Of a stretch of DNA of 64,000 bases, positions 11,081 through 56,215 are shown one piece after another. Position numbers and translations under genes: made by a program. The DNA is taken from the NCBI RefSeq assembly GCF_003006155.1, contig NZ_CP023559.1, forward strand, positions 3,348,001-3,412,000. The letters run 5' to 3'. Each line of letters opens with the position of its first letter. The stretch's first letter is position 1. The DNA comes from Salinicola tamaricis (GTDB lineage: Bacteria; Pseudomonadota; Gammaproteobacteria; Pseudomonadales; Halomonadaceae). The notes below the pieces were generated by a model. The model ran no database searches. It was not told where the DNA came from and saw only the letters and a list, made by a program, of their open reading frames with translations.

Positions 11081-11129
11081 CTCTGACTCAGCGGCGGGGC
11101 GGCAACGCCTCGCCGTTTAGGTTTTGGAT

Positions 11130-13806: not shown

Positions 13807-13831
13807 ATCATAAGGTGTCTTGGGGGCTAAC

Positions 13832-29135: not shown

Positions 29136-29274
29136 CACTGCATATGTTTTTGGCGATGCGTTGACGCAGATGTGCCGTTTTATAAGCTGTCTCGGTAAGG
29201 ACTTGTTTGTCCTTCGGTTTGAATGATTTGGATAATATGGCTGGCTTTATCAGTTGCCACTGAGGGTTGATAGT

Positions 29275-34198: not shown

Positions 34199-34499
34199 AG
34201 ATTGTGTTCTCTGCTGGTGTCTATGAGTTTTGTCATCGGCAAATAGCGGTGAAAGTTCAGACTACCGGGTGATAAATAAAATAAAAATCTAATATGTGTG
34301 TTTGAAACGATGGCAGGGGGATCGGGTCTTCATGCGGCAAGGTGGCTGTGGCGAGACGCAGGGATGCTTCGTCCAGGAGCGAAGCTCGCGCCTACAGGTG
34401 GTCTGTTCTGGCAGATGGCGGCGCGTGACGCACCGTTAGAGTAGCGACCGCGGCAGGGCGCCGCGGTCATAGGTCGGAGCTGGTTTATTTGGAACCGGC

Positions 34500-35836
34500 T
34501 TACTTGGAACTGGCTTGCTCGGTGCGGGCCTGCCACTCGGCCTGCAGGGCGTCCAGGGTGCGGTCGATCTGTTCGCGAGTGTGCTCGCAGTTGAGGAAGA
34601 AGCGTAGACGGGCGCTCTTTTCTGGCACCGCTGGATGGAGGATCGGCTGCACGTTGATGTCGTGCTTGAGCAGAGCATCCGAGAGGCCGGCAGCGAGCAC
34701 CGAGCTGCCGACGATGATCGGCACCACGGCGACGCCGATGCTGTCGCCGATATCAAAACCGCGCGCCTTGGCCTGCTCGAGGAAGTAGCCCGAGATGGTA
34801 TGCAGATCGCGCAGGCGCTGCGGCTCCTCTTTCATCACCGCGAGCGCGGCGAGCGAGGGCGCAGCGACCTGGGCCGGCATGCCCACGCTGTAGAGAAAGC
34901 CGGGCGCGAAGTAGCGCAGCATCTCGACCAGTTCGCGACAGCCGGCGATATAGCCACCGCAGCCGGACATCGTCTTGGAAAGCGTGCCCATCCAGATATC
35001 CACATCAGTGGATGCGACCTGGCAGTGCTCGCGCAGCCCCAGGCCGGTGTCGCCCATTACCGCGAAGGAGTGCGCTTCGTCGACCATCAGCCACGCCTGG
35101 TGGCGCTGCTTGATCTCGACGAAGCGCTTCAGATCGGGGGCGTCCCCATCCATGCTGTAGAGCCCTTCGATCACCACCAGCACGCGCTCGAATTGCCCAC
35201 GATGGCGGGCCAGCAGGGCTTCCAGCGCCGCCGGGTCGTTGTGGGCGAAACTCATCCGCCGCGCGCCGGAGAGCTGGGCGCCCACCAGGGTGCTGTTGTG
35301 GATGTACTCGTCGTGCAGCACCAGATCCTTGGGCCCGAGCAGGTAGCCCAGGGTCGAGACGTTGGTGGCGTGGCCACTGACGAACACCACCGCATCCTCG
35401 ACCTCGTAGGTCTCGGCGATGGCGTGCTCCAACTCATGATGGATGGGGCGCTCGCCGGAGACCGGGCGACTCGCCGAGACCGAGCTGCCGTAGCGCTTTA
35501 GCGCCTCGATGCCGGCCTGGATCACCTTGGGGTGGTGGGCCAGCCCAAGTAGTTGTAGCTGGCGAAGTTGATGCACTCTCGCCCGCCGATGGTGGTGGTG
35601 GCCCCGGCGGTCCCTTCGTGGACCTTGAAGAAGGGGTCGGGAATACCCAGCCGCTGGCCTCCCTCGCGCATCAGCTTCAACTGTTGATAGCCGGGGTGGC
35701 GGTCGAAACGGGTAAAGCGTTCGTCCACCCCGGTGCCAGCGGCGCGCGAGCTGGGTGCGTCACCCGTCGGGCGCTGCTGGCGTCGCTGGCGGGCCTGGTC
35801 GAGCAGGCGCTGCTTGAGCGTATCGGACTGACTCAC
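34500..35836 (-). pseudogene. Alpha-oxoamine synthase (RkpG-like), one frameshift
   Basis: A PLP enzyme of the AONS/KBL/serine palmitoyltransferase family, which joins an acyl thioester to an amino acid with loss of CO2. Motifs: INFASYNYLG, then SVSASRPVSGERPIHHELE, FVSGHATNVSTLGYL, VIEGLYSMDGDAP, LMVDEAHSFAVMGDTG and the PLP-lysine region GTLSKTMSGCGGYIAG. An extra N-terminal stretch of about 60 residues precedes the core. The frame breaks near 35548 because one C is missing (GGGCTGGCCC, where GGC CTG GCC is expected). Corrected length is about 445 aa. Its start overlaps the PKS stop by 4 bases, so it likely releases the PKS product. Similar to the rhizobial rkp-1 gene rkpG. Confidence 0.85.
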
Positions 35837-38800
35837 GGTGTGCTCTCTCCGGGGGCTTGCCCATCCTGCAGCTCGCTGACCCCGTGACGGGCCGCGAGAC
35901 TGCTGATCGATTCCTCTTCACTCTCGCTGTCGCTGCCTTCGCCGCGCAGCTTGTGCATCAGATAGTCGCACAGCTTGGCCAGGGTACCGGCCTCGCTGAG
36001 TACCATCACCGGAACCTGAATGCCCAGGCGTGACTCCAGCGCGGTGACCAGCTCGACCCCCATCAGCGAATCGAAGCCCATGTCGTAGACCGACTTGTGG
36101 ATGTCGATCTTCTCTTCATCGATCAACAGAATCTTGGCGAGTTCCTTGCTGAGGACACCGATCAGGGTGTCGTAGAGCGCTTCCGGCTCCAGACTGGCGA
36201 GCAGCTGCTGCAGGTCGTCGTCGCCTTCGCTGCCGCTGTCGTCGCTGGCGCTGCGCGCGATCTCGCGATAGCGCGGCGTCTCCGCCGTGGGCAGGAAGCG
36301 TGCCAGCGCGCGCCACTCCAGTTCGAGCACGCCGAGCGCGGGGACATCGGCGACCAGCATGCGTTCGAGCACGTCTAGGGCGTCACGCGAGGTGAGCGCT
36401 TCGCCGCCCAGGCGCTCCTGCAGGCTGTCGCGGGTCTGGGTATGCCGCGCCAGGAAGCCGACATCCTCGATCGCGCCCCAGCGCACCACGGTGGCGGGGC
36501 GGCCCTGGGCGCGTCGCTGTGCGCCAAACGCTTCCAGCCAGTGGTTGGCGGCCACGTAGCTGGCCTGGCCGGGGTTACCGAACAGCGTGGTCGCGGAGGA
36601 GTAGACCACGAAGAAGTCGAGCGGGTCATCGGCGGTCAGCGCATCCAGATGGCGCGCGCCGTCGAGCTTGGGTGCCATCGCCCGGCGCACCCGTTCGGCG
36701 TCGAGATTGCGGATCAGGCCATCGTCGATCACCGTGGCGGCGTGCACGATGCCCTTGATCGGACCCAGGGCATCGCGGGCCGTGTCGAGCACAGCGCCCA
36801 GGGCCTCGGCGTCGGTCACGTCGCAGGCTTCGGCGCGCACACTCACGCCCGCGGCCTGCAGGCGTGCCACGCCGGCTTGGGCCTCTTCGGTGGTGGCGCC
36901 GCGGCGTCCCAGCAGCAGCAGCTTGCGGGCGCCCTTGGCGGCCAGCCACTCGGCGGTGGCGAGGCCGAAACCGCCCAGCCCGCCGGTGACCACGTAGGTC
37001 GCGGCGGCATCCAGGTTGAGCGTGAGATCCTCGCCGGGCGTCGGGGCAATCTGCGGCGGACGCTCGTAGGTGACCACCACCTTGCCGATCTGGCGTGCCT
37101 GCTGCATGTAGCGGAAGGCCTCGACCACCCGATCGCTGCCGAAGGCGGTGTAGGGCAGCGGTGCCAGCGTGCCGTCGGCGAACAGCGCCATCATCTCGCC
37201 GAACAGCTCGCCAGTCAGGCGCGGTAGCTCGCGCATCAGCTGGTCGGAGTCGACCCCGAAGTAGCTCAGGTTGTTGCGGAACGGACGCAGCCCGACCTTG
37301 GTGTTCTCGTAGAAGTCGCGCTTACCCAGTTCGATGAAGCGGCCGAACGGATTGAGCACGCGCAGGTTCTGGTTGATCGCCTCGCCGGCCAGCGAGTTGA
37401 GCACCACGTCGACTCCGCGGCCATCACCGCCGTTGTCTACCGAGAGATCGTGCAGAATCTCTTCGGCGAAAGTCAGGCTGCGCGAATCGTAGAGCCGCTC
37501 CACGCCCATCAGGCGCAGGAAGTCGCGCTTTTCCGCCGAGCCGACCGTGGCGTAGATCTCGGCGCCCAGCCAGCGGCCGATCTGGATCGCGGCCAGGCCG
37601 ACGCCGCCGGCGGCACCGTGGATCAGCAGGCGCTCGCCCGGCTGCAGGCGGGCCAGGTGTTTGAGCGAGTAGTAGACGGTGAAGAAGGTCGTGGGGATGG
37701 TCGCCGCGGCGGCATAGCCGATCTCCGCCGGAATCGCGGCAACGGCGTTGGCATCGGCGATCAGGCGGTCGCTGAAGCTCGCCGGGCCGAAACCGACCAC
37801 GGCATCGCCGGGTTTGAGCGGGCTGTCGGCATCGCCGACCCGCACCACCTCGCCGGCGAACTCCAGCCCCAGGGTGGGGCCGGCGAAACCGTTCTCGATC
37901 GCCTCGTCCGAGAGCAGGCCGAGGGCATACATCACGTCGCGGAAGTTGAGCCCGGTGGCCTTGACCGCCACCTCGACCTGACCTGACTGGGGCGCGGCCA
38001 GCGTATGCGGCTGCCAGCGCAGATGGCGCAGTTGGCCGGGCAGTTCGAAACCCAGGCTGACCGCGTGGCCGGCGCCGATCTCGCGCTGCTCGGCTTCGTT
38101 GACACTGCCCGGCGCGGGCTCGAGCCCGAGACGCGGCACCCAGCGCGCGCCCTCGGCATCGAGTACGACCTCGCTCTCGGCATCCGGCATCTCCAGCTCG
38201 AACAGCAGGGCGTCCAGCAGCGCCTCGTTAGTCGCTGCATTGGCCGGCAGGTCGAGCAGCCGCACCTGGCGGCTACCGGCCTCGTTCTGCAATGAGCGGC
38301 CGAAGCCCCACAAGGCCGCGTCTTCGGGCGGCGTGGATCGATCTGCCGCATCTTCGGGCGGCATGAACCGACCAGCCGCGTCTTCGGGCGGCATGAACCG
38401 ATCGGGCGGTGTGGCGCTCAGGGTATCCATCGCGCCCAGGGTGGGGCCGACGCCCTGGGTAATCAGCCACAGTGACGCCTCGCTGCCACTGGCTTCGAGA
38501 CTCTGCAGCCACTGCATGGCGAGCACGCAGCGGGTCTCGGCGTCGCTGCCGAGGCCGCGCAGGTCGACCACCTGGGTCGCGGCGACCTCGGCGAGCAGCG
38601 CCGCCGGCTCGCCATCGTCGCGCCGCGAGACCGTCTCTTCGAGGGCTTGCAGGCGCGCTTCCAGCGCGTTGGCGAGGGGCTGCGAGGTGGCGTCGGCCAG
38701 GATCAGCCAGTGTGCCGGCGCGGGCTCGGCACGCTCGTCGCTATTATCGCCCGGCGTGGCGCTGGACAGCGGCGGTTGGGCGGTCAACAGCACCAGCCCA

Positions 38801-41800
38801 CCGTGGTCGCTCTCCAGGGCATGCTCGGCGATTCCGCGGTAGCCCAGCATGTCGAGCTGTTCGCGGACCTCGGTGAGCGCCGCGGGCAGGGCGTCGTCCT
38901 CCAGGGCCAGCGACAGAAAATGACGCCAGTCGTTGTCATCCTGGGCCAGCAGTGCGATCTGCGCGTCGTCCGCGAGCTGCTGCGGCAGCGCGCGCAGCAG
39001 GGCGGCGGTCTCTTCGCGCGTGCCGTCCAGGGTGATCAGCGCTACCGTTGCCCCGATATCGGCAAGGGCCGCGTCGCTGGCGATCAGTTCGACACGCGCA
39101 TCCTGCTCGGCCAGCGCCTCGGCTTCCTGGCGCGCACTGTCGCGCAGCGGCAGGAAGCGGAACGCCGCGCGGTCACCGGGGATGCCCTGCAGCAGGCGCT
39201 CGCCCAGCTGTGGCCGCGATGCCGCTGCCTCGAGCACGATCAGCCGCTGCTGCGGTGGCAGTAGCTGCAGCGAGAGCTGGTACTGCGCCTGCCAGGTGTC
39301 GGCCAGCGCGAACCAGCCGCGCTCACCCACGCTGGCCTGGATCAGCCGGGTCATGCGTGCGCTGTCCAGCCCCAGGCTTTCGGCGTCGAGCTGGCCGTCG
39401 AGCCACTCGGCCAGGTGCAGGCCGAGCCGGCCGACGCTGTGGGTCAGAGCGGCGTAGTCGGGGTAGTCGCGGATCAGCAGGTTCCAGATCGTGGCGGCAT
39501 CGATCTCCTCCGCCTCGCGCAGCTGCCAGCCGGCATCGGTCTGACTGACCACGCCACTGGCCATGGCAAGCTCGATCACCCGCTGGCGGCGCTGGCGCAG
39601 ATCGGCCGGGCCGCTGTCGAAGCGCGCCTGCGGCAGTTGGCCATCGGCATCGGCATGCGGGCGCAGGGCCTGATCGAGGAAGGTCGCGACCAAGGTGTCG
39701 AGCAGCGGCGCGACCTCGTCGGCGTAGCGGCCGCCGGTCACTTCGCGGTAGCGCGCCTGCAACTCGCTCAGGGCGAGCTCCGCGCTGGCATCATCCAGCG
39801 GTAGGCTGGCGGCTTCCCGCGGTGCCGGGACCAGGCGGTGGTCGAGATAGCTCAACCGGTGCTGGGGGGCATGGCGCAGGCGTGCGGCCTTGAACCGCGC
39901 GCCCTCGACCACGGCGATGGCCTGGCCGTCGGCGGCGTAGAGCGCCACCTCGGCGCACAGCGAGTGGGGTGCCCGGCTGGTGAGGCGGACCTCCATCCAC
40001 GCCGGCGGTGCGGCGTCGAGGCGTAGCTGCAGCCGCTCCAGGCGTACTGGTACGAAGGCCATGCCGCCGGCGGCGGCGAGTTCGTCGGCCAGCAGCGGGA
40101 TGAACAGCTGGAAGGCGCTGTCGAGAATCCCCGGCGCGAGCAGGCAGTCGCGCTGCCCCTCGGCGATCGCCGGCGGCAGGTCGATGCGGCCCAGGGCGCG
40201 GTCATCCTCGAGCCAGATGGCGTCGATGGCCTGGAAGCCGGGGCCGTAGTCGAGCCCGACATGGGCCGCCATCGCCAGGTGGCGCTCGCGGCTGATGTCC
40301 GGGGTACGCTGGGGCAGGCCGGTTCCGCGCCGGCTCAGCAGCAGGCCGCGGGTCTGGGCGGCGATACGCGCGCGGGCGTTGAGGGTCCAGGCATCGTCGC
40401 TGGCCGGCTCGCGGGTCTGCATGGTGAGGCTGCCATCGGCTTCCTGCAGCTCGAGCAGCAGCTTCTTGCCGTGGCTGGCGTCGAGCAGCAGCGGGCTCAG
40501 GATCTCGAGCGCCTCGATATCGAGCAGTGGGCTGGCTTTCCAGGCGCTGGCGGCGGCCAGCGCCAGCTCGGCGAAGCCAGCACCCGGGAACACGGTGGCA
40601 TCGCCGACGCGGTGGTCGACCAGCCACGGCAGGCGCCGGCTATCGAGCTGACTCTCCCAGGCCCAGCCTTGGCGGGCGAGACGGTAGCCGAGCAGTGGGT
40701 GTTCGTAGTGACGTGCCATCAGCCCCTGGGTATCGCCGGTGGGGCTGACCCAGTAGCGCTCGCGTTGCCAGGGGTAGTGGGGCAGGTCGACGAAGCGGCC
40801 GACCACCGGGAACCAGTGGCGCGGTGACACGCTGCCGCTGGCGAGCAGCCCGGCAAGGCTGGCTTCGACGGCGCTGAGTCCATCGTCGCCGCGGGCCAAC
40901 GTACCGAGCAGCGCAGCCTGGCTGAGCGTCGGCGGCGAGGGCGTCGCTGAGGTAGCGGCGCAGGATCGGCTGCGCGCCGATCTCGACGAAGGTGCGCGCG
41001 CCGGCGGCGATCAGGGCGTCGATGGCGGGGGCGAACTGCACCGGCTCGCGGATATTGCGCCACCAGTAGTCGGCGCCCAGCTCGCGGCCGGGTAGGCGTG
41101 TGCCGGAGACGGTGGAGTAGAACGGCAGCTCGCCGTCATTGGGTGTCAGGTGTCCAAGGGCATCGATCAGCGGGGGCGCGAATCGGGTCCATCGCCGGGC
41201 TGTGGAAGGCGTAGTCCAGCGGCAGTCGCTTGGCGAAGATGCGCTCGGCGGTGAGCGCGCTCTCCAGGCGCGTCAGCGCCCAGGCCGGGCCGGCCAGGGT
41301 CACGCCCTTGGCGCTGTTGACCCCGGCGATCACGATCTCGGCGTACTCGGGCGCGTCGAGCCAGCCCTGCATCGCCTCTGCGCCCAGGCCCACGGCGCTC
41401 ATCTCGCCGCTGCCGCGGGTGCGGCCCTGGCCGGCGCTGCGATGGAAGATCACGCTGACCGCGGTCTCCAGCGTCAGCGCGCGGCCCAGGCCCAGGCGGC
41501 GGCGACTTCACCCACGCTATGCCCGGTGACTGCCGCCGGGCGTACGCCCTCGGCGGCCAGCAGCCGGGTCAGTCCCACCTGCAGCGCGAACAGCGCCGGC
41601 TGGGCGATCTCGGTGCGCGCCAGGCGATCCTCACCTGAACTCTCGCGGGCCTGATTGATGCCTTCGAGCTCCTCGCGCAGGGAGAAGTCCGGCATGGCGC
41701 TGGAATAGCGCATCCACTTCGTCGATGGCGGGCGGCGAATACCGCCGACTCCGCCATAGGGTCTGCCCCATGCGCTCCCATTGACAGCCGTTGCCGGTAT

Positions 41801-43387
41801 AACACGAATACCGGGCCGTGGGCCGTCGTCGACACGCTCGGCGCTGGCGCTGCCGGGGACGCTCTCGCCCGCGGCCAGGGCGTCCAGGCGAGTGATTGCG
41901 TCTCCCGCGCTGGTGCTGAATAGCACCGCGGCGTGGGGGTGAGCCTCGCGGCGGAAAGCCAGGCTATAGGCGGTGTCGTAGAAGGCTTCAGGGTGGCTGG
42001 CCAGCGTGGCGCTCAGGCGGCTGGCGAATTCGCGTAGCGCTTCCGGGCTGCGCGCACTGAGGCACAGCGGTAGCTGGCGGTCGGCATCAGCGGCCGCGGG
42101 CTGCGCCATCGCCGGTGCCGACTGCAGCAGCACATGGGCGTTGGCGCCACCGAAGCCGAACGAGTTGACGCCGATGGTCAGCGTGCCCTCGGCTTTGAGG
42201 CGGCGGGGTTTGTCGACGATCTCCAGATTCCAGCCGTCGAGATCGATGCGCGGGTTGACCTGGCGGATACCGATGGTCGCCGGAACTTCGCGCTCGCGCA
42301 GGGCGTAGATCGCCTTGGCCAGGCCGGCGACCCCCGAGGCGGTCTCCAGGTGGCCGAGGTTCGACTTGACCGAGCCGATGGGCAGCGGCTGACGTCGCTG
42401 CTGGCCGATCGCCGCACCGATGGCGCGGGTCTCTAGCGGGTCGCCGACCGCGGTGCCGGTGCCGTGGGCTTCGAGGTAGTCGATATCGTCCGGGGTGAGG
42501 CCGGCACGCGCCAGGGTCTGACGCATCAGCGCCACCTGGGCGTCGGCGTTGGGCACGGTCAGGCCCTTCTTGTAGCCGTCGGTATTGACCCCGCTGCCGG
42601 CGACCACGGCGAGAATGCGATCGCCGTCGGCCACTGCCTTGTCATAATCCTTGAGCAGGAAGACGCCGCCGCCCTCGGAGCGCACGTAGCCATCGCCGTT
42701 GGCGTCGAACACCTGGCAGCGTCCGGTGGGCGAGAGCATGCTCGCCTTGGAGAAGATGATGAAGCCGAACGGATGCAGATGCAGGCTGATCCCGCCGGCC
42801 AGGGCGAGCTCGGTCTCACCGCTGCGAATCGACTGGCACGCCTGGTGGAAGGCCACCAACGACGACGAGCACGCGGTATCCATCGACATGCTCGGCCCGT
42901 GGAGGTCGAACAGGTAGGAGATGCGGTTGGAGGCGATGCTCGAGGTGTTGCCGGTGGCGGTCGAGGTATCGATCGCCGACATGTCGTCGGCCATGCGATA
43001 GGAGTAGTCGAGACTGGCCACGCCCATGAACACCCCGCACTGACTGCCACGCAGGCGCTGCGGGGGAATGCCGGCGTCCTCCATCGCTTCCCAGGTCATC
43101 TCCAGCAGCAGGCGCTGCTGCGGATCCATCTGTGCCGCCTCGCGCGGGGAGATGCCGAAGAACGCCGCATCGAAGCCGGAAATGTCGCCCAGGCTACCGG
43201 CGGCAAAGGTATAGCTGGTGCCGGGATGGTGCTTGTCAGGGTGGCGATAGACCTCATGGTCCCAGCGGTCCGCGGCAACCGTGGTGACCAGGTCTTCGCC
43301 GCTCTTGAGCGCTTGCCAGAAACGTTCTGAAGTCGGGGCGCTCGGGAAACGATGAGCCGCGCCGATGATGGCAACGCGTTGGGTCAT
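35833..43387 (-). pseudogene. Type I polyketide/fatty acid synthase (RkpA-like), KS-AT-DH-(psi)-ER-KR-ACP, frame broken in AT
   Basis: About 2500 aa in total. KS: C173 in DTACSSSLVAFH, then EAHGTGTAVGDPLETRAIGA and SVKSNLGHLETASG. AT: GHSVGEVAAAW, interrupted. DH: hot-dog fold with LVDHRVGDATVFPGAGFAE. A linker with no clear motif follows; it may be a pseudo-MT plus structural KR. ER: GLNFRDVMYALGLL, LLIHGAAGGVGLAAIQIGRW. KR: YVVTGGLGGFGLATAEWLA, then YSSATTLFGNPGQASYVAAN. ACP: DMGFDSLMGVEL with the phosphopantetheine serine. There is no thioesterase. Frames change near 40910, 41170 and 41490, and several times between 41700 and 41840. From 40899 to 35833 it is one open frame of 1688 codons. 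With full reduction it should make a saturated chain handed to the overlapping oxoamine synthase. Confidence 0.87.
38315..38404 (-). repeat. 30-bp in-frame tandem repeat inside the PKS gene, 3 copies
   Basis: Three 30-base units (38315-38344, 38345-38374, 38375-38404) encode a repeated decapeptide of the form (D/G)RFMPPEDAA. They sit in the linker just before ALWGFGRSLQ, at the boundary of the structural region preceding ER. Differences between units are a few bases. Confidence 0.93.
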
Positions 43388-43618
43388 TGGGACTCCTTTC
43401 TCCGTAGCCTGGGGCTACGCCTTGCTATTGTTGCGTCATCGCCGGGGTGCCGTGTGCACTATCGTGGTGTTCGCGATAGGCGAAGACAGCATCCCGTTGG
43501 GGCATCCACGTCCTTGGCGCAGCGCTGCGCCCGTGTGGCGTCGAGATCGCTCGATACGTTCACTGCCTGTGCACGTGATCAGGCATCTTGCCGCCATGAT
43601 TGCCCGTCGATTGCCTGC
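43388..43618. other. Gap inside the minus-strand lipid operon with a perfect palindrome
   Basis: These 231 bases separate the LtaS-like gene from the PKS gene, the only large gap in this operon. A perfect 16-bp palindrome GGCGCAGCGCTGCGCC lies at 43516-43531. It has no T run, so it is more likely a regulator site or attenuating hairpin than a terminator. A GGAG ribosome site precedes the PKS start. Confidence 0.45.
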
Positions 43619-45148
43619 TTATTGCGCTCGATGATGGGTCTGATAAATCGTGGTGCCCAGCTTATCCGCTGACAGTGTCTGGCGCACCTTATCGCTTGGC
43701 TCGGCGTCGCTCTGCCAGATGAAATAGTTCGTCAAACCATCCGGTTCGCCGTGGTCGGCATAGACGCCCGGCATGATCGGTACGTGGTCGCCGTAGAACG
43801 CCAGCATGCCGGGCCTGTCAGCCGTCGTCAGCAGCGCCTTGAGGCGCGCGAGCATCTTGTCGCCGTTGTGCAGGTGGCGCAGATAAACGGCGAGATCGCC
43901 ATGGCCTTCGGGCAGCTCGCCCTCGAGCCAGTCGGCGGCGACGCGGGCATCTGGCGTCTCCAGATGCAGCGGGCCATGATTCTCCATGCTGATCACGAAC
44001 ACGAACAGCGGCTGCGTCGGGCCTGTGGCGAGCATCTCGCGCACCTTCGCCGCGAGGGCCAGGTCGCCAGTGTACTGGCCGTCGCGATCGCTCTCGTCGA
44101 AAGCGCGGATATCGATGAAGTCATCGAAGCCGAGCTGCGGATAGACTCGGTCGCGCAGATAGAAGCTGGCCGGGTAGGGGTGCACGCAGACCGTACGATA
44201 GCCCAGCGCCTTGAGCGCACCGGCGAGGTTGCGTACCGGCATCCGCGCCAGTTGATGGTAGGGGTTGAAGCGATGGCCGCCGAGGGCTTCCGGGGTCAAA
44301 CCGGTAAGCACCGCGCACTCGGTGCGCACGGTGTTGGCGCCCCAGGCGGGCACCTCGAGACGGCCTGCCGCCAGTGCCTGCTCACTCAGAGTATCGAACT
44401 CGCGCAGAATCTCCGGGCGAATGCCGGGGTACCAGCTGCGCGGATCGAAGAACGACTCGCTCTGCACCAGTACCAGGTGCGGTAGGGTGTTGCTGGCCGG
44501 CGGTGTCGCCGGTTGGGGGAAGGCCGCGGCGTTGCCGCCCGCTGCCAGCGGCTGGCGCAGTAACCTGCCGTAGGCCCACAGATAGGGATAAATGCCTAGT
44601 TCGACCAGGTCGTGGTTGGGCTCCAGGTTGCAGGCTGGCATGCGTGGCAGCGCCAGCCACAGGGCGATCACGCTGGCGGCACTCAATGCCAGGGTGACGA
44701 ACAGGCTCCAGGGCGCGTCGGGGCGGGCGAACAGCGAGGGTTCGAGCCAGAACCCGGCGGCGATGGCCAGGGCGCCGGCACTGCTGGCGGCGATGGTCAA
44801 ACCGATACCGAAGAAGGGGATATAGAGGCGCGGGTGCTTGACCGCATCGACGAAGTACTCGAAGTCCTGGCACAGGAAGGGCTCGCGTAGCGACGCCGAT
44901 TTGGTGTTGTTGACCTGGACGATCACCATCTGCAGCGAGCCGGCGATCACCACTGCGAACCACGGGCGCTGCACGATCAGCAGCCACAGCGTGAAGTGCA
45001 GCAGGGTAGTGGCCGCGTGCACGCCGATCACCGCAGCCGAACGACGCCATAGCGGGCGCGGGCGTGGCACGAGCAGCAGCTCGAACAGCGACGTGAGCAG
45101 CAGTGTGATCAGCGCAGCGCCAAGGGTTTGAGCGATACCGGCACTCAT
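43619..45148 (-). CDS. LTA synthase/sulfatase-family membrane enzyme (RkpI-like candidate)
   Basis: The 509-aa protein has about five N-terminal membrane helices (AALITLLLTSLFELLLV, AATTLLHFTLWLLIVQRPW, AIAAGFWL, LFVTLALSAASVIALWLAL). A periplasmic alkaline-phosphatase/sulfatase-fold domain follows: LVLVQSESFFD with metal ligands, WGANTVRTECAVLTGL around the likely nucleophile threonine, FVFVISMENHGPLH and AFYGDHVPIMPG. Related proteins transfer glycerol-phosphate or phosphoethanolamine from lipids. The start ATG at 45148 overlaps the SDR stop (ATGA); upstream in-frame codons lie inside the SDR gene. Its place in the operon suggests head-group or anchor modification of the capsule lipid. Confidence 0.8.
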   Translation of the reverse strand: MSAGIAQTLGAALITLLLTSLFELLLVPRPRPLWRRSAAVIGVHAATTLLHFTLWLLIVQRPWFAVVIAGSLQMVIVQVNNTKSASLREPFLCQDFEYFVDAVKHPRLYIPFFGIGLTIAASSAGALAIAAGFWLEPSLFARPDAPWSLFVTLALSAASVIALWLALPRMPACNLEPNHDLVELGIYPYLWAYGRLLRQPLAAGGNAAAFPQPATPPASNTLPHLVLVQSESFFDPRSWYPGIRPEILREFDTLSEQALAAGRLEVPAWGANTVRTECAVLTGLTPEALGGHRFNPYHQLARMPVRNLAGALKALGYRTVCVHPYPASFYLRDRVYPQLGFDDFIDIRAFDESDRDGQYTGDLALAAKVREMLATGPTQPLFVFVISMENHGPLHLETPDARVAADWLEGELPEGHGDLAVYLRHLHNGDKMLARLKALLTTADRPGMLAFYGDHVPIMPGVYADHGEPDGLTNYFIWQSDAEPSDKVRQTLSADKLGTTIYQTHHRAQ

Positions 45149-45924
45149 GACTTCGAGCCCTCGGCGTAGTCGAGCCACTTGAGCAGGCGCTGGGAGACCG
45201 CCGCCGGCAGTACCGCCAGCCACCAGCAGCCGAAGTCGAGCGGGAAGGGAAAGCTGACGCGGGCGCGGTTGCGCGCAACGCCCGTGGCGATGCGCCGGGC
45301 GGCCCGCTCCGGCTGCCACAGGAACGGCTTGGGTCCGGGCATGTCATGGCACATCTGCGAGCTGACGTAGCCTGGCATGATCACGCTGACGCCGACGCCA
45401 TAGGGCGCCAGCCAGCCGCGCAGAGCCTCTCCATAGGCCTTCACGCCGGCTTTGCTGGCGCTGTAGCTGGGCGTCACCGGCAGCCCGTGGTAGGCGGCCA
45501 GCGAGCTCATGAAGACCAGTTGGCCACGCCCCGCGGCGCGCATGCGCTTGCCCAGAAAGTTGCCCATCGCCATGGGTACGCGCAGGTTGATCGCGAGCAG
45601 GCGGCTGGCGTCGTCCCAGGCTTCGCCCTGATTGTCGGTGCCGATATCGATGTTCATGCCGGCGTTGACGATGACCAGGTCGGGCGGCGTCGGCGCGCAT
45701 AGCGATTCGAGCCAGGCGAACAGGGCGTCGTCGTCCTCGAGGTCGACGCGGCTGGTCTCGACCTCGGCCCCTAGCCGTCGGCAGGCGCCGGCGACTTCGT
45801 CGAGCATGTCGCTGCGCCGCCCGTGGAGTACCAGCCGGCAGCCCTTGGCATGCGCTTCGGCGTAGTGCTTGGCCAGGGCGGCGCCAATGGCACCGGTGGC
45901 TCCGGTGATGACGATACGTCTCAT
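45145..45924 (-). CDS. Short-chain dehydrogenase/reductase (RkpH-like)
   Basis: A classical SDR of 259 aa: IVITGATGAIGAALAKHYAE for NAD(P) binding, VIVNAGMN, a catalytic serine in FMSSLAAYHG and Y-x3-K in YSASKAG. The C terminus has a hydrophobic stretch (FGCWWLAVLPAAVSQRLL) that may attach it to the membrane. It overlaps kpsS and the LtaS-like gene by 4 bases each. In sphingoid base synthesis an SDR reduces the 3-keto group made by the oxoamine synthase; the same job is plausible here. The rhizobial rkp-1 region has an SDR, rkpH, in the equivalent context. Confidence 0.88.
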   Translation of the reverse strand: MRRIVITGATGAIGAALAKHYAEAHAKGCRLVLHGRRSDMLDEVAGACRRLGAEVETSRVDLEDDDALFAWLESLCAPTPPDLVIVNAGMNIDIGTDNQGEAWDDASRLLAINLRVPMAMGNFLGKRMRAAGRGQLVFMSSLAAYHGLPVTPSYSASKAGVKAYGEALRGWLAPYGVGVSVIMPGYVSSQMCHDMPGPKPFLWQPERAARRIATGVARNRARVSFPFPLDFGCWWLAVLPAAVSQRLLKWLDYAEGSKS

Positions 45925-47170
45925 GAAGCAATCTCGTCCTTGAGTTGTTGCAGCGGCGAGCGGTCACGTTCCATGACCTGCAGGGCATGCCCGGCCGCCA
46001 GCTCGATACCCGGGCGGCAGTAGAACCCACCGTTGATCTGTACCGTCTGCGCCACGGTGCGGCGATAGGCTCGAAACAGTGCCGCATCCGGCTGCGGCCT
46101 ATTCTGCCAGAAATCGTCCAGCTTGCCCTGGTGAGTGAGTCCGGGCATGTCGTAGATCGGCGAGGCCAGGGTATGGGTGGGGCAGCCGAAGCCGAGCGAG
46201 ACGTTGCCGGCAGTACTGTTGACGGTGACCAATCCACTGGCACGCTTGAGCAGCGCCTCCAGATTGCCGCCTTCGAGATAGACCAGGCGTCCCGCCAGAT
46301 CGTACTCCTTCATCAGCACCTTGATCAGCCGGGCGTAGTGGGCCAGGCCCATGTCCAGCGGGTGGTTCTTGATCACCAGGCGGGCATCGGCGGGGGCATG
46401 ATAGGCGAACGAGGCCGCCACCTTGCCGATCACCTCCTGCATGTTCTTGAAGTCGGAGTGATAGCGAATCTGGGCGTCGCTCTTGAGCTGCAGCGGCAGC
46501 AGAAAGAACGGATGGTCTTCGCTCAGCAGCGTGTGCATGCGCTCGTCGTCGCGCCGCGTCAGATAGGGCATGCGCGCCTTGCGCAGCAGAAACCCGGCAT
46601 ACTCCACCGGTGCGGTGACCAGCGCGTGATTGCGGTAGTGCGGATGCAGAAACGGGTTGGCCACTCCCGCCAGGTGATAAAGCACGTCGTGGCGAGCGCG
46701 GGTGCTGAACTGATTGGGAAACGGGCTGGGCTTGCCGGCGCTGGGCAGCCGTCTGCCCGCCTCGCGGTACCACTCCGGGTCCCGTGGCAGTAGCGAGAGT
46801 GAGCGTTGACGCCTTCGCGCTCCAGGGTGACCCAGTAGGGGCGAAAGTAGCCCTCTTCGAACACGTGATTGCGGATACCGCGTTCACGCGCGGCGAGAAT
46901 CGCGCGGCGATGCACCGGGCGGCGATCGCCGAACACCACCTGATCGGTCACCGCGTGGCGCTCCCAGATCCGCGCCAGATAGGCGGGAATCCGTTCGGCG
47001 TGGCCGCGATAGGCGTAGGTGTTGCCGTGGTGCCAGTAGAGACTGTCGCCGACGGTGAAGTTGACCTTGATCACACGATGCCCTGCCGCAAGCAGCTGCT
47101 CGCCAAGCCGGTCGAAAAACGGCGAGCAGACACCTTGCAACAGCAGGAAACACTTGCGGGACGTCGTCAA
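45921..47170 (-). pseudogene. kpsS: Capsule beta-Kdo transferase KpsS, one frameshift
   Basis: KpsS adds the first beta-Kdo to the lipid anchor of ABC-exported capsules. N-terminal part: KCFLLLQGVCSPFFDRLGEQ, VNFTVGDSLYW, VFGDRRPVHRRA and FEEGYFRPYWVTLEREGV. C-terminal part: FFLLPLQLKSDAQIRYHSDF, VIKNHPLDMGL and LVTVNSTAGNVSLGFGCPTH. The frame is lost near 46795 (gctcactctcgctactg), between EREGVNAHS and LPRDPEWYREAG. Corrected length is about 416 aa, normal for KpsS. It overlaps the SDR gene by 4 bases and follows kpsC by 1 base, so all are one operon. High GC, native composition. Confidence 0.92.
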
Positions 47171-47171
47171 C

Positions 47172-49250
47172 TCATTGCCTTTTGGAGAACAGGTTGCGGT
47201 AGAGACGATAGGCGCGGGTGCGCAGGGAGAGCCCCCGGCGCGCGTTGCGCTGCTGGCGCATCAGCTCGATGGCGGTGTCGGCATTACAGTAGTCGCCGCT
47301 CTGTGGGTCGACATAGGTCGGATAGAGCAGCAGTGCCCCGGCGATCAGCGCATCGAGGCTCAGGCGGCGCGTGCGCCGGGGGCTGTGCAGGCGGTCGTGG
47401 GTCAGCCCCCAGCCAGCGCGTAGAACGGTAGCCCGTAGGTGTGCACCGCGACGCCGCGCATCAGCCCTTCGAAGCCGGTCAGCGAGCACATGGTATGAAT
47501 CTCGTCGGCCAGGTCGATGAGATCGATGATGTCGCAGTCGATCAGCTCGAGGTCGAACAGGTCCTGGGCCTGGCGGTCGATCAGCCCGACCCGTGCCCCC
47601 GAGGTCACGTCCGGATGCGGCTTGTAGATGATGAAGGCATCTGGGCGGCGCTCGCGCACGGCCGCCAGCAGCTGCTGGTTGGTCTTGATCTCCGGCGAGC
47701 CCTGGGCGATCGACGCATCGGTCTCGACCTGGCCCGGCACCAGGACGATCGGCCGCGTACCGATCTCCTCGCGCGGCAGCGCCGGCAGGTTGCGCCCGGC
47801 GACGTTGTACTTCGACAGCTTGAGATCGATCAGCCGCTGGCGCAGGCGCGCCGCCCGCGCCAGCAGGGCGGCATCGAAGGGGGTGTGCTCGAGCAACTGC
47901 TCGAGATCGCTGGTGTGATTGGCGTCGTAGTAGAGGCCGCGGGCGTCGAAGGCGAGCGACAGTGGCCGAGTCAGGTCGACTCCGAGCCCCACCGAGCGCA
48001 CGAAGCCATCCTCCATGCGCCACAGGCGTACGCCATGCGCCTGGCACAGCGTCTTGATCTCCGGGGTGAGTTTCTGCCCCCACACCACCAGGCTGTCGCA
48101 GGTCGCGAGCTGTGCCGCCAGCGGTGTCTTCTCGTGGCTGAACTGCACCGTGGCTGCCGGGCCAGGAAATCTCTGACGAAGCCGCGCTTCCAGTTGGAGA
48201 AGCCTAGTGCCAGCCAGCGACCCGCCAAGCGGTCGCGCTGGCGCTTCTGGTCGGCGAGCAGGTCGAGGGTCTCCTCCAGCGTCGAAGGCGTAGCCGTGTA
48301 GGGGTTGGCGTAGCGGCAGTAGCGTAGATAGGCCGCTGCGAACAGCTCTTCCAGCGAGCGCTGTCGCTGCCGTCGCGGGCACGCCTGGGCGTCCCGGGTG
48401 AGTCCCCAACCGGCGTAGAAGGGGACACCAAAACAGTGCACTGGCTTGCCGGCCATCAGCGCTTCGAACCCGAGCTGGCTGGTGACCACGTAGACCGCCT
48501 TCACTGCGTCCATCAGCGCCCACGGGTTGATGTCCTCGCCCATCAGGCGACAGCGCGGCTGCGTCGCTGCCGCGGTGAGATAGCCGCGCTTGCGCCCGGC
48601 GATCACGTCGGGATGGGTCTTGATCAGAATCTCTGCCTCGGGATGATCGGCCAGTGCCTGCTCGAGCATCCGCGTGAAGGCGTCCGCATCGGCCATGCCA
48701 TGAGTGATCGAAGCGTCGTCGCGGGTCTGATCCACCACCAGCACGCGCGGGCGCTCGGCCGGGGCAGCGGGCGATCCGGGGCATGGTTGTACTTGGACAG
48801 GCGCAGCTCGCGCAGACGCTGCATGGCGCGCGCCGCGCGGTCGAGTTCGGCGGCGTCGAACTCGGCGTGGTTGAGCCAGCGCTCGAGATCGGAGGGCCGT
48901 GTGGCGTCGTAATAGATGCCGCTGAAATCGACCACCAGGCTGTGCGGCTGGGCGTGGTCGACTCCCAGCCCCAGCGAGCGCAGGAAACCATCCTCGATCG
49001 CCACGTAGGGCAGGTCACGTCGGGCGGCGAGGTGGCGTGCCCGAGCTGCGGTGGGCTTGAGCCCCCAGCCGACGACCGCATCCAGCGGGCGCCGGCTGTA
49101 CGGTCCGACATGTTTGAGCTGCGGATACTCCGGCAGCAGACATCCCACGACGCGCCAGCGCGCCAGCCCGCGTGAGAGATAGCCGGCCACGCGGCCGCCC
49201 GCAGCTCCGGGCAGTGAAGAAGACGACGAGACTGTCGGATCGTTGTTCAT
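47172..49250 (-). pseudogene. kpsC: Two-module capsule Kdo transferase KpsC, three frameshifts
   Basis: KpsC extends the beta-Kdo linker with alternating linkages using two transferase modules. Both are present. N module: YVAIEDGFLRSLGLGVDHAQ, LSKYNHAPDR, LVVDQTRDDASITHG, ILIKTHPDV and VPFYAGWGLTRD. C module: LWRMEDGFVRSVGLGVDLTR, LSKYNVAGR, VLVPGQVETDASIAQGSPE, IIYKPHPDV and GWGLTHDR. Breaks: near 48775 (between DRPLPR and RVLVVDQ), near 48172 (one G missing in ttcctggcccgg, coding strand) and near 47410 (inside YAGWGL). Corrected length is about 690 aa. The start is taken as 49250 (MNNDPTVSS); no good ribosome site is seen, so it is approximate. First gene of the minus-strand operon. Confidence 0.9.
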
Positions 49251-50093
49251 ATTGCGAGAAAAAGGCCAGACCGTCATCGAAATGGATCGCCACGCTACGC
49301 AACTTCCCTGCATTAGGCAATCGCCGGCGGCGTACGGGAGAGTGCGCGCAGTGTAGCGCATCGGGGGTCGGATTTGGGGCGTTTTCAACCGCTGTCTGGC
49401 GATGGCGAAAGAGATTGAGTCAGGCGTTTCATTGTGTATCGATTAACGCGCTAATCGAAGGCGCAAATGTAATCAAGGTTTTCTCATGGAAAAGACGAGT
49501 CATGCCTGTATGAGAACTCTCATGTATTGACGCGTCGCATTCTCCGTTTTCTTTCATGGTCGTTTCGGTGTCGATGTCTGGCTTTCTCATGAAACGCAGA
49601 GGATGGCGTCCATTCACTGCCGAAACAGGCGCGTTGTGGGTAAGCCAATAGTCCTCGTGGCCGCCTCTGTTTTTTCCATTAAACCCTTTTGAAACAGTGT
49701 CTTGAGGCGGTTTAGAAAACTCAGTGTCCTCAATGAATTGTTGATCGACAGATTCAGAAATTCATGTCGTCGATCAATAATGTCAATTTACAAAAAGAAA
49801 CATTGACGTTTTTTGACGTTTGACTCGCCGTGGGGTTTCACCGAAAAAGAGCGCAAGTTAGCCCGTTCAAGAGCGCTGGCGATATCACTGATTATCGTCT
49901 CGTTCGCGGTCGTGTAGCGAAACGTCAACAGGGTTCGGCCGGCGCCGGAGTGGCCCGTGATTACAGGAATTGACATGTCTGCGTCTGCCAGCATCAGCGG
50001 TGTACATGACTTCGAGACCCAAGGCATCCCCGCAGGGGCCAGTTCAGGCCACTTTGCCGCTGCGCCGCGGCGGCGTCGATCGGAGTCACGTGC
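49251..50093. promoter_or_regulatory. Long divergent regulatory region between kpsC and cysD
   Basis: About 840 bases without a recognisable gene separate the minus-strand lipid operon from the plus-strand cys genes. The middle (49380-49870) is clearly AT-richer than either flank. An inverted repeat with 13-base arms (ATTGTTGATCGAC 49737-49749, partner 49769-49781, one mismatch, 19-base centre) and nearby direct repeats of TTGACGT (about 49803-49824) look like regulator-binding sites. Promoters for both directions are expected here, but I cannot fix them. Confidence 0.55.
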
Positions 50094-51011
50094 ATGAGCG
50101 TGCCGGGGACGCTGGGCCAGACGCACCTGAGGCAGCTCGAGGCGGAGTCGATGTACATCATCCGCGAAGTCGTGGCCGAGTTTCGCCGCCCGGTCATGCT
50201 CTACTCCATCGGCAAGGACTCCTCGGTGATGCTGCATCTGGCGCGCAAGGCGTTCTATCCGGGCTCGCCGCCGTTTCCGCTACTGCACGTCAATACCACC
50301 TGGAAGTTCAAGGAGATGATCGCCTTTCGCGATCGCGTCCTGGCCCAGGTCGGCATGCCGCTGATCGAGCATATCAATGAAGAGGGGCGAGCCGCCGGCA
50401 TCAACCCCTTCGACCACGGCAGCGCCAGATACACCGACATCATGAAGACCCAGGCGCTCAAGCAGGCGCTGGATACCCACGGCTTCGATGCCGCCTTCGG
50501 CGGCGCGCGGCGCGACGAGGAAGCTTCCCGCGCCAAGGAGCGGGTCTACTCCTTTCGTGACAGGCACCACCGCTGGGATCCCAGAAACCAGCGCCCGGAA
50601 CTATGGAATCTCTACAACGGCAGGATCGGGCCGGGCGAGTCGATCCGCGTATTCCCACTCTCCAACTGGACCGAGCTGGACATCTGGCAATACATCCACC
50701 TCGAGTCGATTCCCATCGTGCCGCTCTATTACGCCGCACCGCGTCCGGTGGTGGTACGCGACGGCCGGCTGATCATGGTCGATGACGAGCGCCTACCGCT
50801 GGCCCCCGGCGAGCTCCCCGAGGAGCGCTGGGTGCGCTTCCGCACCCTCGGCTGCTATCCGCTCACCGGCGCGGTGGCGTCCCACGCCGCGACGCTGCCC
50901 GCGATCATTCGAGAGATGTTGCTGACCCGCACCAGCGAACGCTTCGGGCGTGCCATCGACCACGATCAGGCGGGGTCGATGGAGAAGAAAAAACGCGAAG
51001 GGTACTTCTGA
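50094..51011 (+). CDS. cysD: Sulfate adenylyltransferase subunit 2
   Basis: The catalytic subunit of ATP sulfurylase, forming APS from sulfate and ATP. The PP-loop is [19 protein letters not shown] (S38 to S44). Further hallmarks are [40 protein letters not shown] and [20 protein letters not shown]. At 305 aa it is the normal length. GGAG lies 8 bases before the ATG. Followed after 73 bases by cysNC. Sitting between capsule genes, it resembles nodPQ-type extra copies that supply PAPS for glycan sulfation. Confidence 0.94.
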
Positions 51012-51084
51012 GGCGGCGACGTAGGAATCGAACCAGAACCAGCGGCCGGCGCCCGGGCGCCGCAGGCCATCGAGAGGGAACACC

Positions 51085-52986
51085 GTGTCACACGCGTCAG
51101 CCATGATCACCGACAACATCGAGGCCTACCTGAGAGTGCACGAGCACAAGGGAATCCTGCGCTTCATCACTTGCGGCAGCGTCGACGATGGCAAGTCGAC
51201 CCTGATCGGGCGGCTGCTGCACGACGCCAGAATGATTTTCGAGGATCAGCTGGCGGCGGTGGCGCGGGACTCCAAGCGCTGTGGCACCACCGGTGAGCGC
51301 ATGGATCTGGCGCTGCTGGTCGACGGCCTGCAAGCGGAACGCGAGCAAGGCATCACCATCGATGTCGCCTACCGTTTCTTCTCCACCGACAAGCGCAAGT
51401 TCATCATCGCCGATACCCCGGGGCACGAGCAGTACACCCGCAACATGGTCACCGGCGCCTCTACCGCAGACCTGGCGGTAATCCTGATCGATGCGCGCCT
51501 CGGGGTTAAGGCGCAGACCCGCCGGCACAGCTATCTGTGCGACCTGCTTCGCCACCTGGTGGTGGCGGTCAACAAGATGGACCTGGTCGGCTATTCGCGC
51601 GAGCGCTTCGAGGAGATCGTCGCGGCGTACCGCCATTTCGCCACGCGGCTGACGGCCACCGACATCCGCTTCGTGCCGCTGTCCGCGCTGGAGGGTGACA
51701 ACGTCGTCGACCCCAGCGAGCGCATGCCGTGGTATCAGCTCGGTGGCCAGCGCGGGCCGGCGTTGCTGCCGCTGCTCGAGCAGATCGATATCACCACCCC
51801 GGCGCCGTTCGAGGCGCTGCGCTTTCCTGTGCAGTACGTCAATCGTCCTAACCCTCACTTCCGTGGCTACTGCGGCACCCTGGCCGCCGGCACCCTGCGT
51901 CCGGGGGATGCGGTGCGGGTGTTGCCCTCGCGGCAGCGAGCCAGGGTGGCGCGCTTGGTTACCAACGATGGTGATCTCGAGATCGCCTATCCGGGCCAGT
52001 CGATCACCGTGACCCTCGACGCCGAGGTCGACGTCTCGCGCGGAGACATGCTGGTGGCGGAAGCGTCGGAGCTGACGCCGTGCAGCGCCTTCAGCGCGGA
52101 TCTGGTGTGGCTGCACGAGACGCCGCTGGCGCTGGGCCACGAGTACGAGCTCAAGGCGGCGACCCGTAACGTCTGCGCGCGGGTGGTGAGACTGCTGCAT
52201 CAGGTCGATGTCGACACCCTGGCGCACATGCCTACGCAGCGGCTCGCCCTCAACGGGATCGCGCGCTGCCAGATCGAGGTGGATCAGCCGCTGGTGCTGG
52301 ACAGCTATCAGCGCTCCCCGGGCACCGGCGCTTTCGTGCTGATCGATCGCTTCAACCATCTGACCGTCGCCGCCGGCATGGTCATCGACACCCTGAGCGC
52401 GGCCAATTTGGTGTGGCACGACATGGCGGTGACTCAGCGTCGCCGCGCCGAGCGCCACCGCCAGAAGCCCTGCGTGGTGTGGTTCACCGGCTCTCCGGCG
52501 CCGGCAATCGGCGTCGCTGATGCGCTCGAGCGCCAGCTCTTCGGCATGGGGCACAGCACCTATCTGCTCGATGGCGACAACCTGCGCCACGGACTGTGCA
52601 GCGATCTGGGCTTCGGCGACCGCGAGCGCCAGGAAAACATGCGCCGGGTCGGCGAGGTGGCTCGGCTGATGGTCGACGCCGGCATGATCGTGCTGGTCGC
52701 ACTGATCTCCCCCTTCCGCCAGGAGCGCCAGCGGGTGCGCGAGCGCATGGCGCCGGACGAGTTCATCGAAGTGTTCGTCAATACCCCGCTGGCGGTGTGC
52801 GAGCGACGTGACCCCAAGGGGCTCTACCGTCGTGCCCGGGCGGGGGAAATCGCCCAGTTCACCGGTATCAGCTCGCCCTATGAAGCGCCCCAGCAGCCCG
52901 AGATCGAGATCGATACCTCGCACAACGACCTGACGCTGACGGTCGCCGGGCTGATCGCCGCGCTGCGGCACGAGGGCGTCATTTGA
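51085..52986 (+). CDS. cysNC: Bifunctional sulfate adenylyltransferase subunit 1/adenylylsulfate kinase
   Basis: CysN is the GTPase activating CysD; CysC phosphorylates APS to PAPS. CysN part: G1 [15 protein letters not shown] (from residue 31), [22 protein letters not shown]. CysC part (from about 465): [52 protein letters not shown]. The CysC P-loop is abnormal: [15 protein letters not shown], where the family has TGLSGAGKS..A.ALE. Reading the DNA, three single-base losses within about 25 bases (52492-52515) would turn the normal motif into this one and restore frame. As written the kinase should be dead. GTG start with GAGAGGG ribosome site. Length 633 aa, normal. Confidence 0.92.
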
Positions 52987-55356: not shown

Positions 55357-55383
55357 GCGCCGCAGCGAGAGGAGGGCGCGCGC

Positions 55384-56199: not shown

Positions 56200-56215
56200 C
56201 GCGGAGGAGCGAGCC

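What the first reader, a model, noticed from the sequence alone, without database searches (positions are those of the whole stretch)
34500..49250. rkp-1-like lipid operon fused to kpsC/kpsS: a possible polyketide-derived capsule anchor
Seen: one minus-strand operon with overlapping or adjacent genes, kpsC, kpsS, SDR, LtaS-like membrane enzyme, a 231-base gap, PKS and alpha-oxoamine synthase. Known: classical group 2/3 capsules use a lyso-phosphatidylglycerol anchor built on by KpsS/KpsC. Sinorhizobium rkp-1 has a PKS/FAS (rkpA), an oxoamine synthase-like gene (rkpG), an SDR (rkpH), a membrane protein (rkpI) and a KpsC-like gene (rkpJ), all needed for K antigen. Inference: this bacterium makes a fully reduced chain, condenses it with an amino acid to a 3-keto-amino lipid, reduces it (SDR), adds a head group (LtaS-like) and uses it as the Kdo acceptor. 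Such an anchor would replace or supplement phosphatidylglycerol.
Basis: partly seen in the sequence, partly recalled or inferred. Interest (0 to 1): 0.88.

Follow-up and report, generated by a model that had tools for sequence, protein, structure and literature searches.

The report
Capsule operon with dedicated lipid-anchor genes
A salt-loving bacterium carries the known rhizobial/Burkholderia-type gene set that probably builds a special lipid on which its capsule sugar is grown, and the capsule-starting enzyme seems to come in a version that travels with that gene set, so the unknown lipid can now be looked for directly.

Summary
The six-gene minus-strand operon is real: kpsC, kpsS, SDR, LtaS/GacH-like transferase, PKS, alpha-oxoamine synthase (AONS), in a Salinicola genome. 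Four of the six genes are broken in frame here; 21 of 22 examined relatives have them intact, and other window genes are split too, so sequencing error is likelier than decay. It is an rkp-1/wcb-type module: counterparts of all five S. meliloti rkp-1 proteins are present (AONS-RkpG 52%; SDR-RkpH only 26%), and the PKS groups with RkpA, apart from nine other PKSs. RkpJ is KpsS-type, so kpsS belongs to rkp-1. Cobetia's matching layout was published in 2025 as lipid biosynthesis of unknown chemistry: a new member of a known kind. New here: in 151 Halomonadaceae genomes AONS, KpsS and transferase occur in the same 51; and a 76-row KpsS tree over alpha-, beta- and gammaproteobacteria splits by presence of the lipid genes (2 changes, 23 by shuffling), E. 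coli KpsS falling with the lipid-less group. The transferase's nearest solved relative, GacH, moves glycerol phosphate, suggesting a sphingoid look-alike of lyso-phosphatidylglycerol as Kdo acceptor. That chemistry is inferred. Against exclusivity: two genomes carry RkpA-type PKS/AONS without KpsS.

The parts
47175..49388 (-). kpsC, predicted dual beta-Kdo transferase; four frame pieces in this assembly (exact start not settled)
   Evidence: Capsule_synth PF05159 in pieces; 87-97% identity by piece to the single 737-aa frame of L040
45921..47170 (-). kpsS-type gene, predicted first beta-Kdo transferase; two frame pieces
   Evidence: PF05159; NCBIfam KpsS NF050054 153 and 96 bits for the pieces, 264 for the intact relative, all below the curated 600; C-terminal piece 37% to RkpJ
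45145..45924 (-). SDR (rkpH/wcbP position), predicted 3-keto reductase
   Evidence: adh_short E 9.5e-30; 26% to RkpH
43619..45148 (-). LtaS/GacH-type membrane enzyme, predicted glycerol-phosphate transferase (rkpI/wcbQ position)
   Evidence: Sulfatase PF00884; best solved relative GacH, E 3.7e-31; 37% to RkpI over 257 residues of the catalytic part
43388..43618 (-). 231-base gap with GAAAGGAG just before the PKS ATG; a promoter here is possible but was not shown
   Evidence: sequence; promoter scan of the region no better than shuffles
35833..43387 (-). PKS, RkpA/WcbR type, KS-AT-DH-(degenerate MT)-ER-KR-ACP; four frame pieces
   Evidence: Pfam on three pieces, motifs in intact relatives, KS tree with the window's own KS, 40-41% to RkpA over KS and ER-KR-ACP parts
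34500..35836 (-). alpha-oxoamine synthase (rkpG/wcbT position); GTG start overlaps the PKS stop; two frame pieces
   Evidence: 52% to RkpG; profile nearest to serine palmitoyltransferase structures, E 2.5e-95
50094..52986 (+). cysD and cysNC: sulfate activation next to the operon
   Evidence: PF01507; GTP_EFTU and APS_kinase
53639..58282 (+). capsule exporter: KpsD-like (split here), KpsM-like, KpsT-like and, by position only, KpsE
   Evidence: Poly_export, ABC2_membrane, ABC_tran; no Pfam hit for 57053-58282

Best explanation
This is an rkp-1/wcb-type module that makes the lipid on which an ABC-exported capsule is started. Proposed route: the single-module reducing PKS builds a saturated chain; AONS joins it to an amino acid with loss of CO2, giving a 2-amino-3-ketone like 3-ketosphinganine; the SDR reduces the ketone; the GacH/LtaS-type transferase moves glycerol phosphate from phosphatidylglycerol onto the amino alcohol, giving a sphingoid look-alike of lyso-phosphatidylglycerol; the matching KpsS puts the first Kdo on that glycerol and KpsC extends it; KpsMTED exports. 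Shown: families, order, conservation, co-occurrence, KpsS split. Inferred: every chemical step, the amino acid, the head group, the acceptor role. I put about 0.85 on 'rkp-1/wcb-type capsule lipid module', 0.6 on 'its product is the KpsS acceptor' and 0.3 on the exact chemistry.
For: Matches to all five S. meliloti rkp-1 proteins, found in rkpA-G-H-I-J order in L253. PKS beside AONS in 78 of 80 named loci. KS tree: RkpA/WcbR clade of 40 rows, 99% SH-aLRT. In the intact relative L040 the KS, AT, ER, KR and ACP motifs are present, AT motif GHSVG/YAFHS; the MT motif is degenerate. The genome has its own BioF elsewhere (456 bits, over cut-off). AONS profile best PDB match is serine palmitoyltransferase. 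Transferase: GacH E 3.7e-31 ahead of LtaS 2e-9, with E, T, H and DH positions invariant. AONS, KpsS and transferase in the same 51 of 151 family genomes. Phylum: KpsS in 14 of 18 AONS-positive (E<=1e-130) against 44 of 380 other genomes, p 9e-10; with all 24 at E<=1e-90 it is 15 of 24 against 43 of 374, p 2e-8. KpsS tree: 2 label changes against 23.0 shuffled; 26 of 28 AONS-negative rows, E. coli included, on one side (87/80). Published: rkp-1 products taken to make 'a specific lipid carrier' (PMC4881576, passage).
Against: No chemistry seen. G162 and G469 have RkpA-clade PKS and AONS but no KpsS at E<=1e-50; G162 has no Capsule_synth match, G469 one weak match on another contig. So the lipid can exist without KpsS. 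G467 and G316 also lack KpsS, but their KS domains fall outside the RkpA clade. In the family the genes are one operon, so co-loss is one event. The KpsS search profile came from lipid-linked KpsS, which favours the split, and the 1e-130 cut was set after seeing the list. One KpsS column only separates the groups. By NCBIfam the AONS scores best with bioF, not SPT, and meets no cut-off. The DH histidine pattern as I wrote it matched in 15 of 47 PKS rows and not in L040. RkpH is only 26% like the SDR. LtaS/GacH domains are normally outside (recalled) while KpsS works at the inner face.
Confidence: 0.6

Rival explanations
1. KpsS uses ordinary (lyso-)PG here too; the PKS/AONS lipid is a separate envelope lipid needed for export or for holding the capsule in the outer membrane.
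For: (lyso-)PG is the known KpsS acceptor in E. coli (PMC10148158, PMC7694667, passages). G162 and G469 have the lipid genes without KpsS.
Against: Same 51 of 151 family genomes for AONS, KpsS and transferase and a KpsS tree that follows the lipid genes across classes; none of the 151 has KpsS (E<=1e-50) without them.
Confidence: 0.22
2. The PKS, AONS and SDR make the anchor, but the LtaS-like enzyme decorates the polysaccharide with phosphoglycerol in the periplasm.
For: Suggested for Cobetia, whose capsule carries phosphoglycerol on mannose (PMC11766843, passages). GacH acts on a polysaccharide (recalled).
Against: It stays with the lipid genes in distant bacteria, e.g. S. meliloti RkpI, and follows AONS 51 for 51 in the family.
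Confidence: 0.25
3. A secondary-metabolite PKS cluster that happens to lie beside capsule genes.
For: Fused PKS-AONS proteins occur on Planktothrix and Streptomyces plasmids with no capsule transferase in the stretch shown.
Against: Those fall outside the RkpA/WcbR clade; 22 of 22 examined family regions keep the six-gene order.
Confidence: 0.03
4. The operon is decaying and non-functional in this strain.
For: 8 frame breaks in four of six genes, denser than in the 17 matched genes outside, of which 4 are clearly split.
Against: Those outside breaks and the low completeness point to assembly errors; the genes are whole in 21 of 22 relatives examined.
Confidence: 0.1

Closest known systems
Sinorhizobium meliloti rkp-1 (rkpA-G-H-I-J)
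   Same: All five proteins have counterparts; PKS and AONS adjacent
   Different: Here kpsC sits in the same operon, and SDR, transferase and kpsS lie upstream of the PKS instead of downstream; the SDR is only 26% identical
Cobetia marina KMM 1449 kpsSC + wcbPQRT (PMC11766843)
   Same: Described with kpsSC, wcbPQRT, kpsETMD and PAPS genes in one region, and already read as lipid biosynthesis (passages and one section)
   Different: From the text I saw, no substantive difference; I did not compare its sequence. The passages give no lipid chemistry and do not treat KpsS type
Burkholderia/Paraburkholderia wcb-type clusters
   Same: Transferase, PKS and AONS in the same order
   Different: An extra stretch of roughly 0.8-0.9 kb between PKS and AONS (wcbS by recall); KpsS not seen within the held flanks, which reach only part of the region
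E. coli group 2/3 capsule (KpsS, KpsC on (lyso-)PG)
   Same: KpsS and KpsC families and ABC export
   Different: No Escherichia record among the 18 plasmid-collection records with this AONS (E<=1e-60); its KpsS lies in the lipid-less part of the tree
Salmonella Typhi Vi capsule anchor
   Same: An ABC-exported capsule on a lipid other than PG, so non-PG anchors are already known (PMC12220298, passage)
   Different: Vi lacks the poly-Kdo linker and uses an acylated N-acetylhexosamine
GacH phosphoglycerol transferase (5u9z, 5wcx, 6dgm)
   Same: Catalytic domain and aligned motifs
   Different: Acceptor unknown here; membrane parts not compared

Membership tests
rkp-1/wcb capsule lipid module | RkpA/WcbR-type single-module PKS | tested here: met
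   KS tree clade 99% SH-aLRT, window's own KS included; domains and motifs
rkp-1/wcb capsule lipid module | RkpG/WcbT-type AONS beside the PKS | tested here: met
   52% to RkpG; GTGA overlap; AONS tree, 44-row clade at 94% SH-aLRT with the intact relatives
rkp-1/wcb capsule lipid module | RkpH/WcbP-type SDR | tested here: inconclusive
   SDR present in the operon, only 26% to RkpH
rkp-1/wcb capsule lipid module | RkpI/WcbQ membrane transferase | tested here: met
   37% to RkpI over 257 residues; both Sulfatase PF00884
rkp-1/wcb capsule lipid module | Required for capsule production | not testable with these tools
   Reported for rhizobia (PMC4881576, passages)
KpsS/KpsC capsule (group 2/3 type) | Capsule_synth (PF05159) Kdo-transferase-type proteins and ABC exporter | tested here: met
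KpsS/KpsC capsule (group 2/3 type) | Curated NCBIfam KpsS equivalog over cut-off | tested here: not met
   264 bits for the intact relative against 600; I therefore call it KpsS-type by PF05159, profile and tree, not the curated equivalog
KpsS/KpsC capsule (group 2/3 type) | Kdo linker on (lyso-)PG | not testable with these tools
   KpsS of the relatives belongs to the other tree group than E. coli KpsS
Serine palmitoyltransferase | Curated SPT models over cut-off | tested here: not met
   Intact relative 274, 274 and 202 bits against 500, 640 and 670; SPT rows lie apart in the AONS tree
BioF (8-amino-7-oxononanoate synthase) | Curated bioF model over cut-off | tested here: not met
   334 bits against 426; the genome has another gene over the cut-off
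Lipoteichoic acid synthase | Curated LtaS model over cut-off | tested here: not met
   29 bits (window) and 31 bits (relative) against 970

The most novel reading that the evidence does not exclude
Proteobacterial Kdo-primed capsules come in two anchor chemistries, each with its own KpsS lineage: the E. coli type on lyso-PG, and a widespread second type on a PKS-made, sphingoid-like phosphoglycerol lipid with a carbon-bonded, alkali-stable chain.
Probability: 0.3. Interest if true: 0.82.

Novelty: new member of a known kind. Interest (0 to 1): 0.55.

Why it matters
What lipid carries rkp/wcb-type capsules has been open since the 1990s (recalled), and the passages I read treat (lyso-)PG as the rule, with Vi as the exception. 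If KpsS comes in two lineages matched to two anchors, capsule attachment, outer-membrane retention and the search for KpsS inhibitors would differ between large groups of bacteria, including nitrogen-fixing symbionts. The claim can be tested with one mutant and one mass spectrum in a halophile.

Tried and rejected
Secondary-metabolite reading disfavoured. BioF or Kbl role for AONS: the genome has another gene over the bioF cut-off, but family scores do not separate SPT, BioF and Kbl; NCBIfam puts bioF first, the PDB profile search puts SPT first. A search for KpsS residues marking the two groups gave one column only. Loop charges of the transferase: in 17 of 17 rows the first loop carries 2-5 K/R and at most one acid; the third carries 2-5 K/R but also 4-5 acids. 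By the positive-inside rule this leans to a cytoplasmic catalytic domain if there are five helices, but the one control (L268, printed) was judged by eye and helices 2 and 3 may be a hairpin, so it is only a lead. Promoter and terminator scan no better than shuffles. Rfam gave no match at gathering score. No paper was found in the held library that determines or proposes a PKS/AONS-derived capsule anchor (searches, judged from listings and opened passages); the 1997 rkpGHIJ paper is not held, and papers were seen as listings, abstracts, passages or one section, none in full.

Motif patterns were crude: of 47 PKS rows they matched in 45 (ACP), 44 (KS HGTGT, AT serine, KR S-Y), 43 (KS cysteine), 41 (KS second His), 39 (AT specificity), 37 (DH D), 36 (ER), 32 (KR cofactor) and 15 (DH His). 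In one search the N-terminal KpsS piece of the window was translated in the wrong frame (3 stops, shown as X) and gave no hit; the C-terminal piece carries the KpsS result. The kpsC pieces gave no hit in S. meliloti L253. L041-L043 held the wrong side or too little and were refetched. For the KpsS tree I fetched 27 KpsS from 26 of the 44 lipid-less genomes that had one, picked by hand down the list; G215 was labelled lipid-less although it has a distant AONS match (9.8e-112) with no PKS in the fetched region. One search counts rest on 10-kb flanks, so absence of KpsS or KpsC there means little. L209 gave no KS row. The nine outside KS domains there are from plasmid PKS/NRPS-type genes whose products I do not know; L278 has no annotation.
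Full report
What is there. The window lies in a 4.28-Mb, one-contig genome, 93.25% complete. Its genus (g1) is read as Salinicola because contigs of congeners match, by length, records named S. acroporae, S. salarius and S. aestuarinus; the family is read as Halomonadaceae. On the minus strand, 49.4 to 34.5 kb, run kpsC, a kpsS-type gene, an SDR, an LtaS/GacH-type membrane enzyme, a 231-base gap, a PKS of about 2,500 residues and an alpha-oxoamine synthase. The PKS stop and AONS start overlap by GTGA. Next to it on the plus strand are cysD, cysNC and an ABC capsule exporter, as described for the sulfated-capsule locus of Cobetia marina (PMC11766843, passages and one section).

Frame breaks. 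kpsC, kpsS, PKS and AONS are split into 4, 2, 4 and 2 pieces in this assembly. Of the 51 family genomes that carry the AONS (window included), I fetched the whole region of 22 others: all 22 have the six genes in the same order, and in 21 each gene is one open frame. In L060 the PKS, transferase and kpsS are in pieces. Outside the operon, of 17 genes of the relative G101 that could be matched to the window, 4 are split here, 2 are doubtful at their starts and 11 are whole. I read the breaks as sequencing error, without proof; they are denser in the operon.

Membership. Against the S. meliloti rkp-1 region (L253) the window gives AONS-RkpG 52%, PKS-RkpA 40-41% (KS and C-terminal parts; 25-33% in DH-MT and AT parts), transferase-RkpI 37%, KpsS-RkpJ 37% and SDR-RkpH 26% identity. 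RkpI is an unannotated ORF in that record, with the Sulfatase domain. RkpJ scores 382 bits with my KpsS profile and has no KpsC match, so a kpsS-type gene is part of rkp-1 and kpsC is what is added here. In the KS tree the window's own KS falls in a 40-row clade with S. meliloti RkpA, Nitrosomonas and Burkholderia (99% SH-aLRT); nine other plasmid PKS/NRPS-type KS domains and the rows L101, L102, L103, L107, L254 and L256 lie outside. In 80 named loci with an AONS relative, 78 have the PKS on the same strand beside it; of the two misses, L186 holds 0.8 kb upstream and L203 holds 6.4 kb without a PKS hit above threshold.

Distribution. In 151 family genomes, 61 have an AONS match at E<=1e-60; 10 of these have only a 37-39% match of another kind, leaving 51 (63-100% identity). 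KpsS at E<=1e-50 is in 51 and the transferase in 51; comparing the printed handles, they are the same 51. This is one operon, so it amounts to few events. Across 398 phylum genomes, 18 have AONS at E<=1e-130 (a cut set after seeing the list) and KpsS is in 14 of these, against 44 of the other 380 (Fisher p 9e-10). With all 24 at E<=1e-90 it is 15 of 24 against 43 of 374 (p 2e-8). In G242 the KpsS and AONS lie on different large contigs. Of the four among the 18 without KpsS, G467 and G316 have a KS outside the RkpA clade and G162 and G469 one inside it. G162, G467 and G316 have no Capsule_synth match, G469 one weak match on another contig. So the lipid module can exist without KpsS.

KpsS comes in two kinds. 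A careful tree of 76 KpsS (48 from genomes with the AONS, including 7 second copies in Salinicola; 28 from genomes without, including E. coli) needs 2 changes of the label, against a shuffled mean of 23.0; 26 of 28 AONS-less rows form one side (bootstrap 87, SH-aLRT 80; 100/93 without L213), and the other two come from one family. E. coli KpsS, whose acceptor is (lyso-)PG (PMC7694667, PMC10148158, passages), lies among the 26. In families f38 and f51, which hold both states, the KpsS rows go with the state and not with the family. The intact Salinicola-type KpsS scores 264 bits on NCBI's curated KpsS model, under its cut-off of 600, which fits a divergent type but also means it is not that curated equivalog. 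Limits: the search profile was made from lipid-linked KpsS, near-copies inflate the shuffle test, 26 of 44 lipid-less genomes were sampled, and one alignment column separates the groups.

Chemistry, inferred. In the intact relative L040 the KS, AT, ER, KR and ACP motifs are found by pattern; the DH aspartate motif is found and the DH histidine only by eye. The AT motif GHSVG/YAFHS points to malonyl units (recalled rule), and the methyltransferase region lacks its cofactor motif, so a plain saturated chain is expected. AONS keeps the S-K, D and H positions; its profile is nearest to serine palmitoyltransferase structures, closely followed by BioF/Kbl-type chains, while NCBIfam ranks bioF first and no curated cut-off is met. 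The transferase profile is far nearer to GacH, named a phosphoglycerol transferase, than to LtaS, with the active-site positions invariant. If it puts glycerol phosphate on the reduced amino alcohol, the result copies the part of lyso-PG that KpsS reads. Topology is unsolved: such domains usually face outwards (recalled), and my loop-charge count is only a lead.

Known or new. The module is known as rkp-1 ('a specific lipid carrier', PMC4881576, passages) and as wcb; PMC3908369 (passages) ties wcbR and rkpA together, and PMC11766843 already describes kpsSC with wcbPQRT in Cobetia as lipid biosynthesis. Halomonas piscis wcbQ and wcbR are also in print (PMC10752968, passages). So the locus is a new member of a known kind. 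What I did not find in the held library is the lipid's structure, or the observation that KpsS divides with the lipid genes.

Noticed in passing
L060 (G145), about 9,100-11,800: The PKS is interrupted by a stretch of about 2.7 kb, and the transferase and kpsS are in pieces: possibly a natural loss of the module.
   Followed up: no
L255, Pseudomonas sp. TMW 2.1634 plasmid pL21564-1: A mobilizable plasmid carries the PKS-AONS pair, two kpsC-type genes, a kpsS-type gene, SDR, LTA synthase-like gene and Kdo synthesis genes, and a phytanoyl-CoA dioxygenase beside AONS.
   Followed up: partly
window 29236-30288: A phytanoyl-CoA dioxygenase-family gene in the window's capsule region; the Pseudomonas plasmid has one next to its AONS.
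   Followed up: no
window 13814-17332 and 26973-29132: Two further Capsule_synth proteins (1173- and 720-aa frames); more matches lie outside the window. 13 of the 17 listed Salinicola congeners show a second KpsS match.
   Followed up: partly
L122, L193, L207, L210: Loci of Stappiaceae and an unnamed alphaproteobacterium-like genome (G409) carry two KpsS genes side by side that fall in two neighbouring clades of the KpsS tree.
   Followed up: no
   Followed up: partly
window 32700-34261: A gene downstream of AONS without a Pfam match for its 384-aa piece; one 521-aa frame in the relative (L270 498-2060), split here.
   Followed up: no
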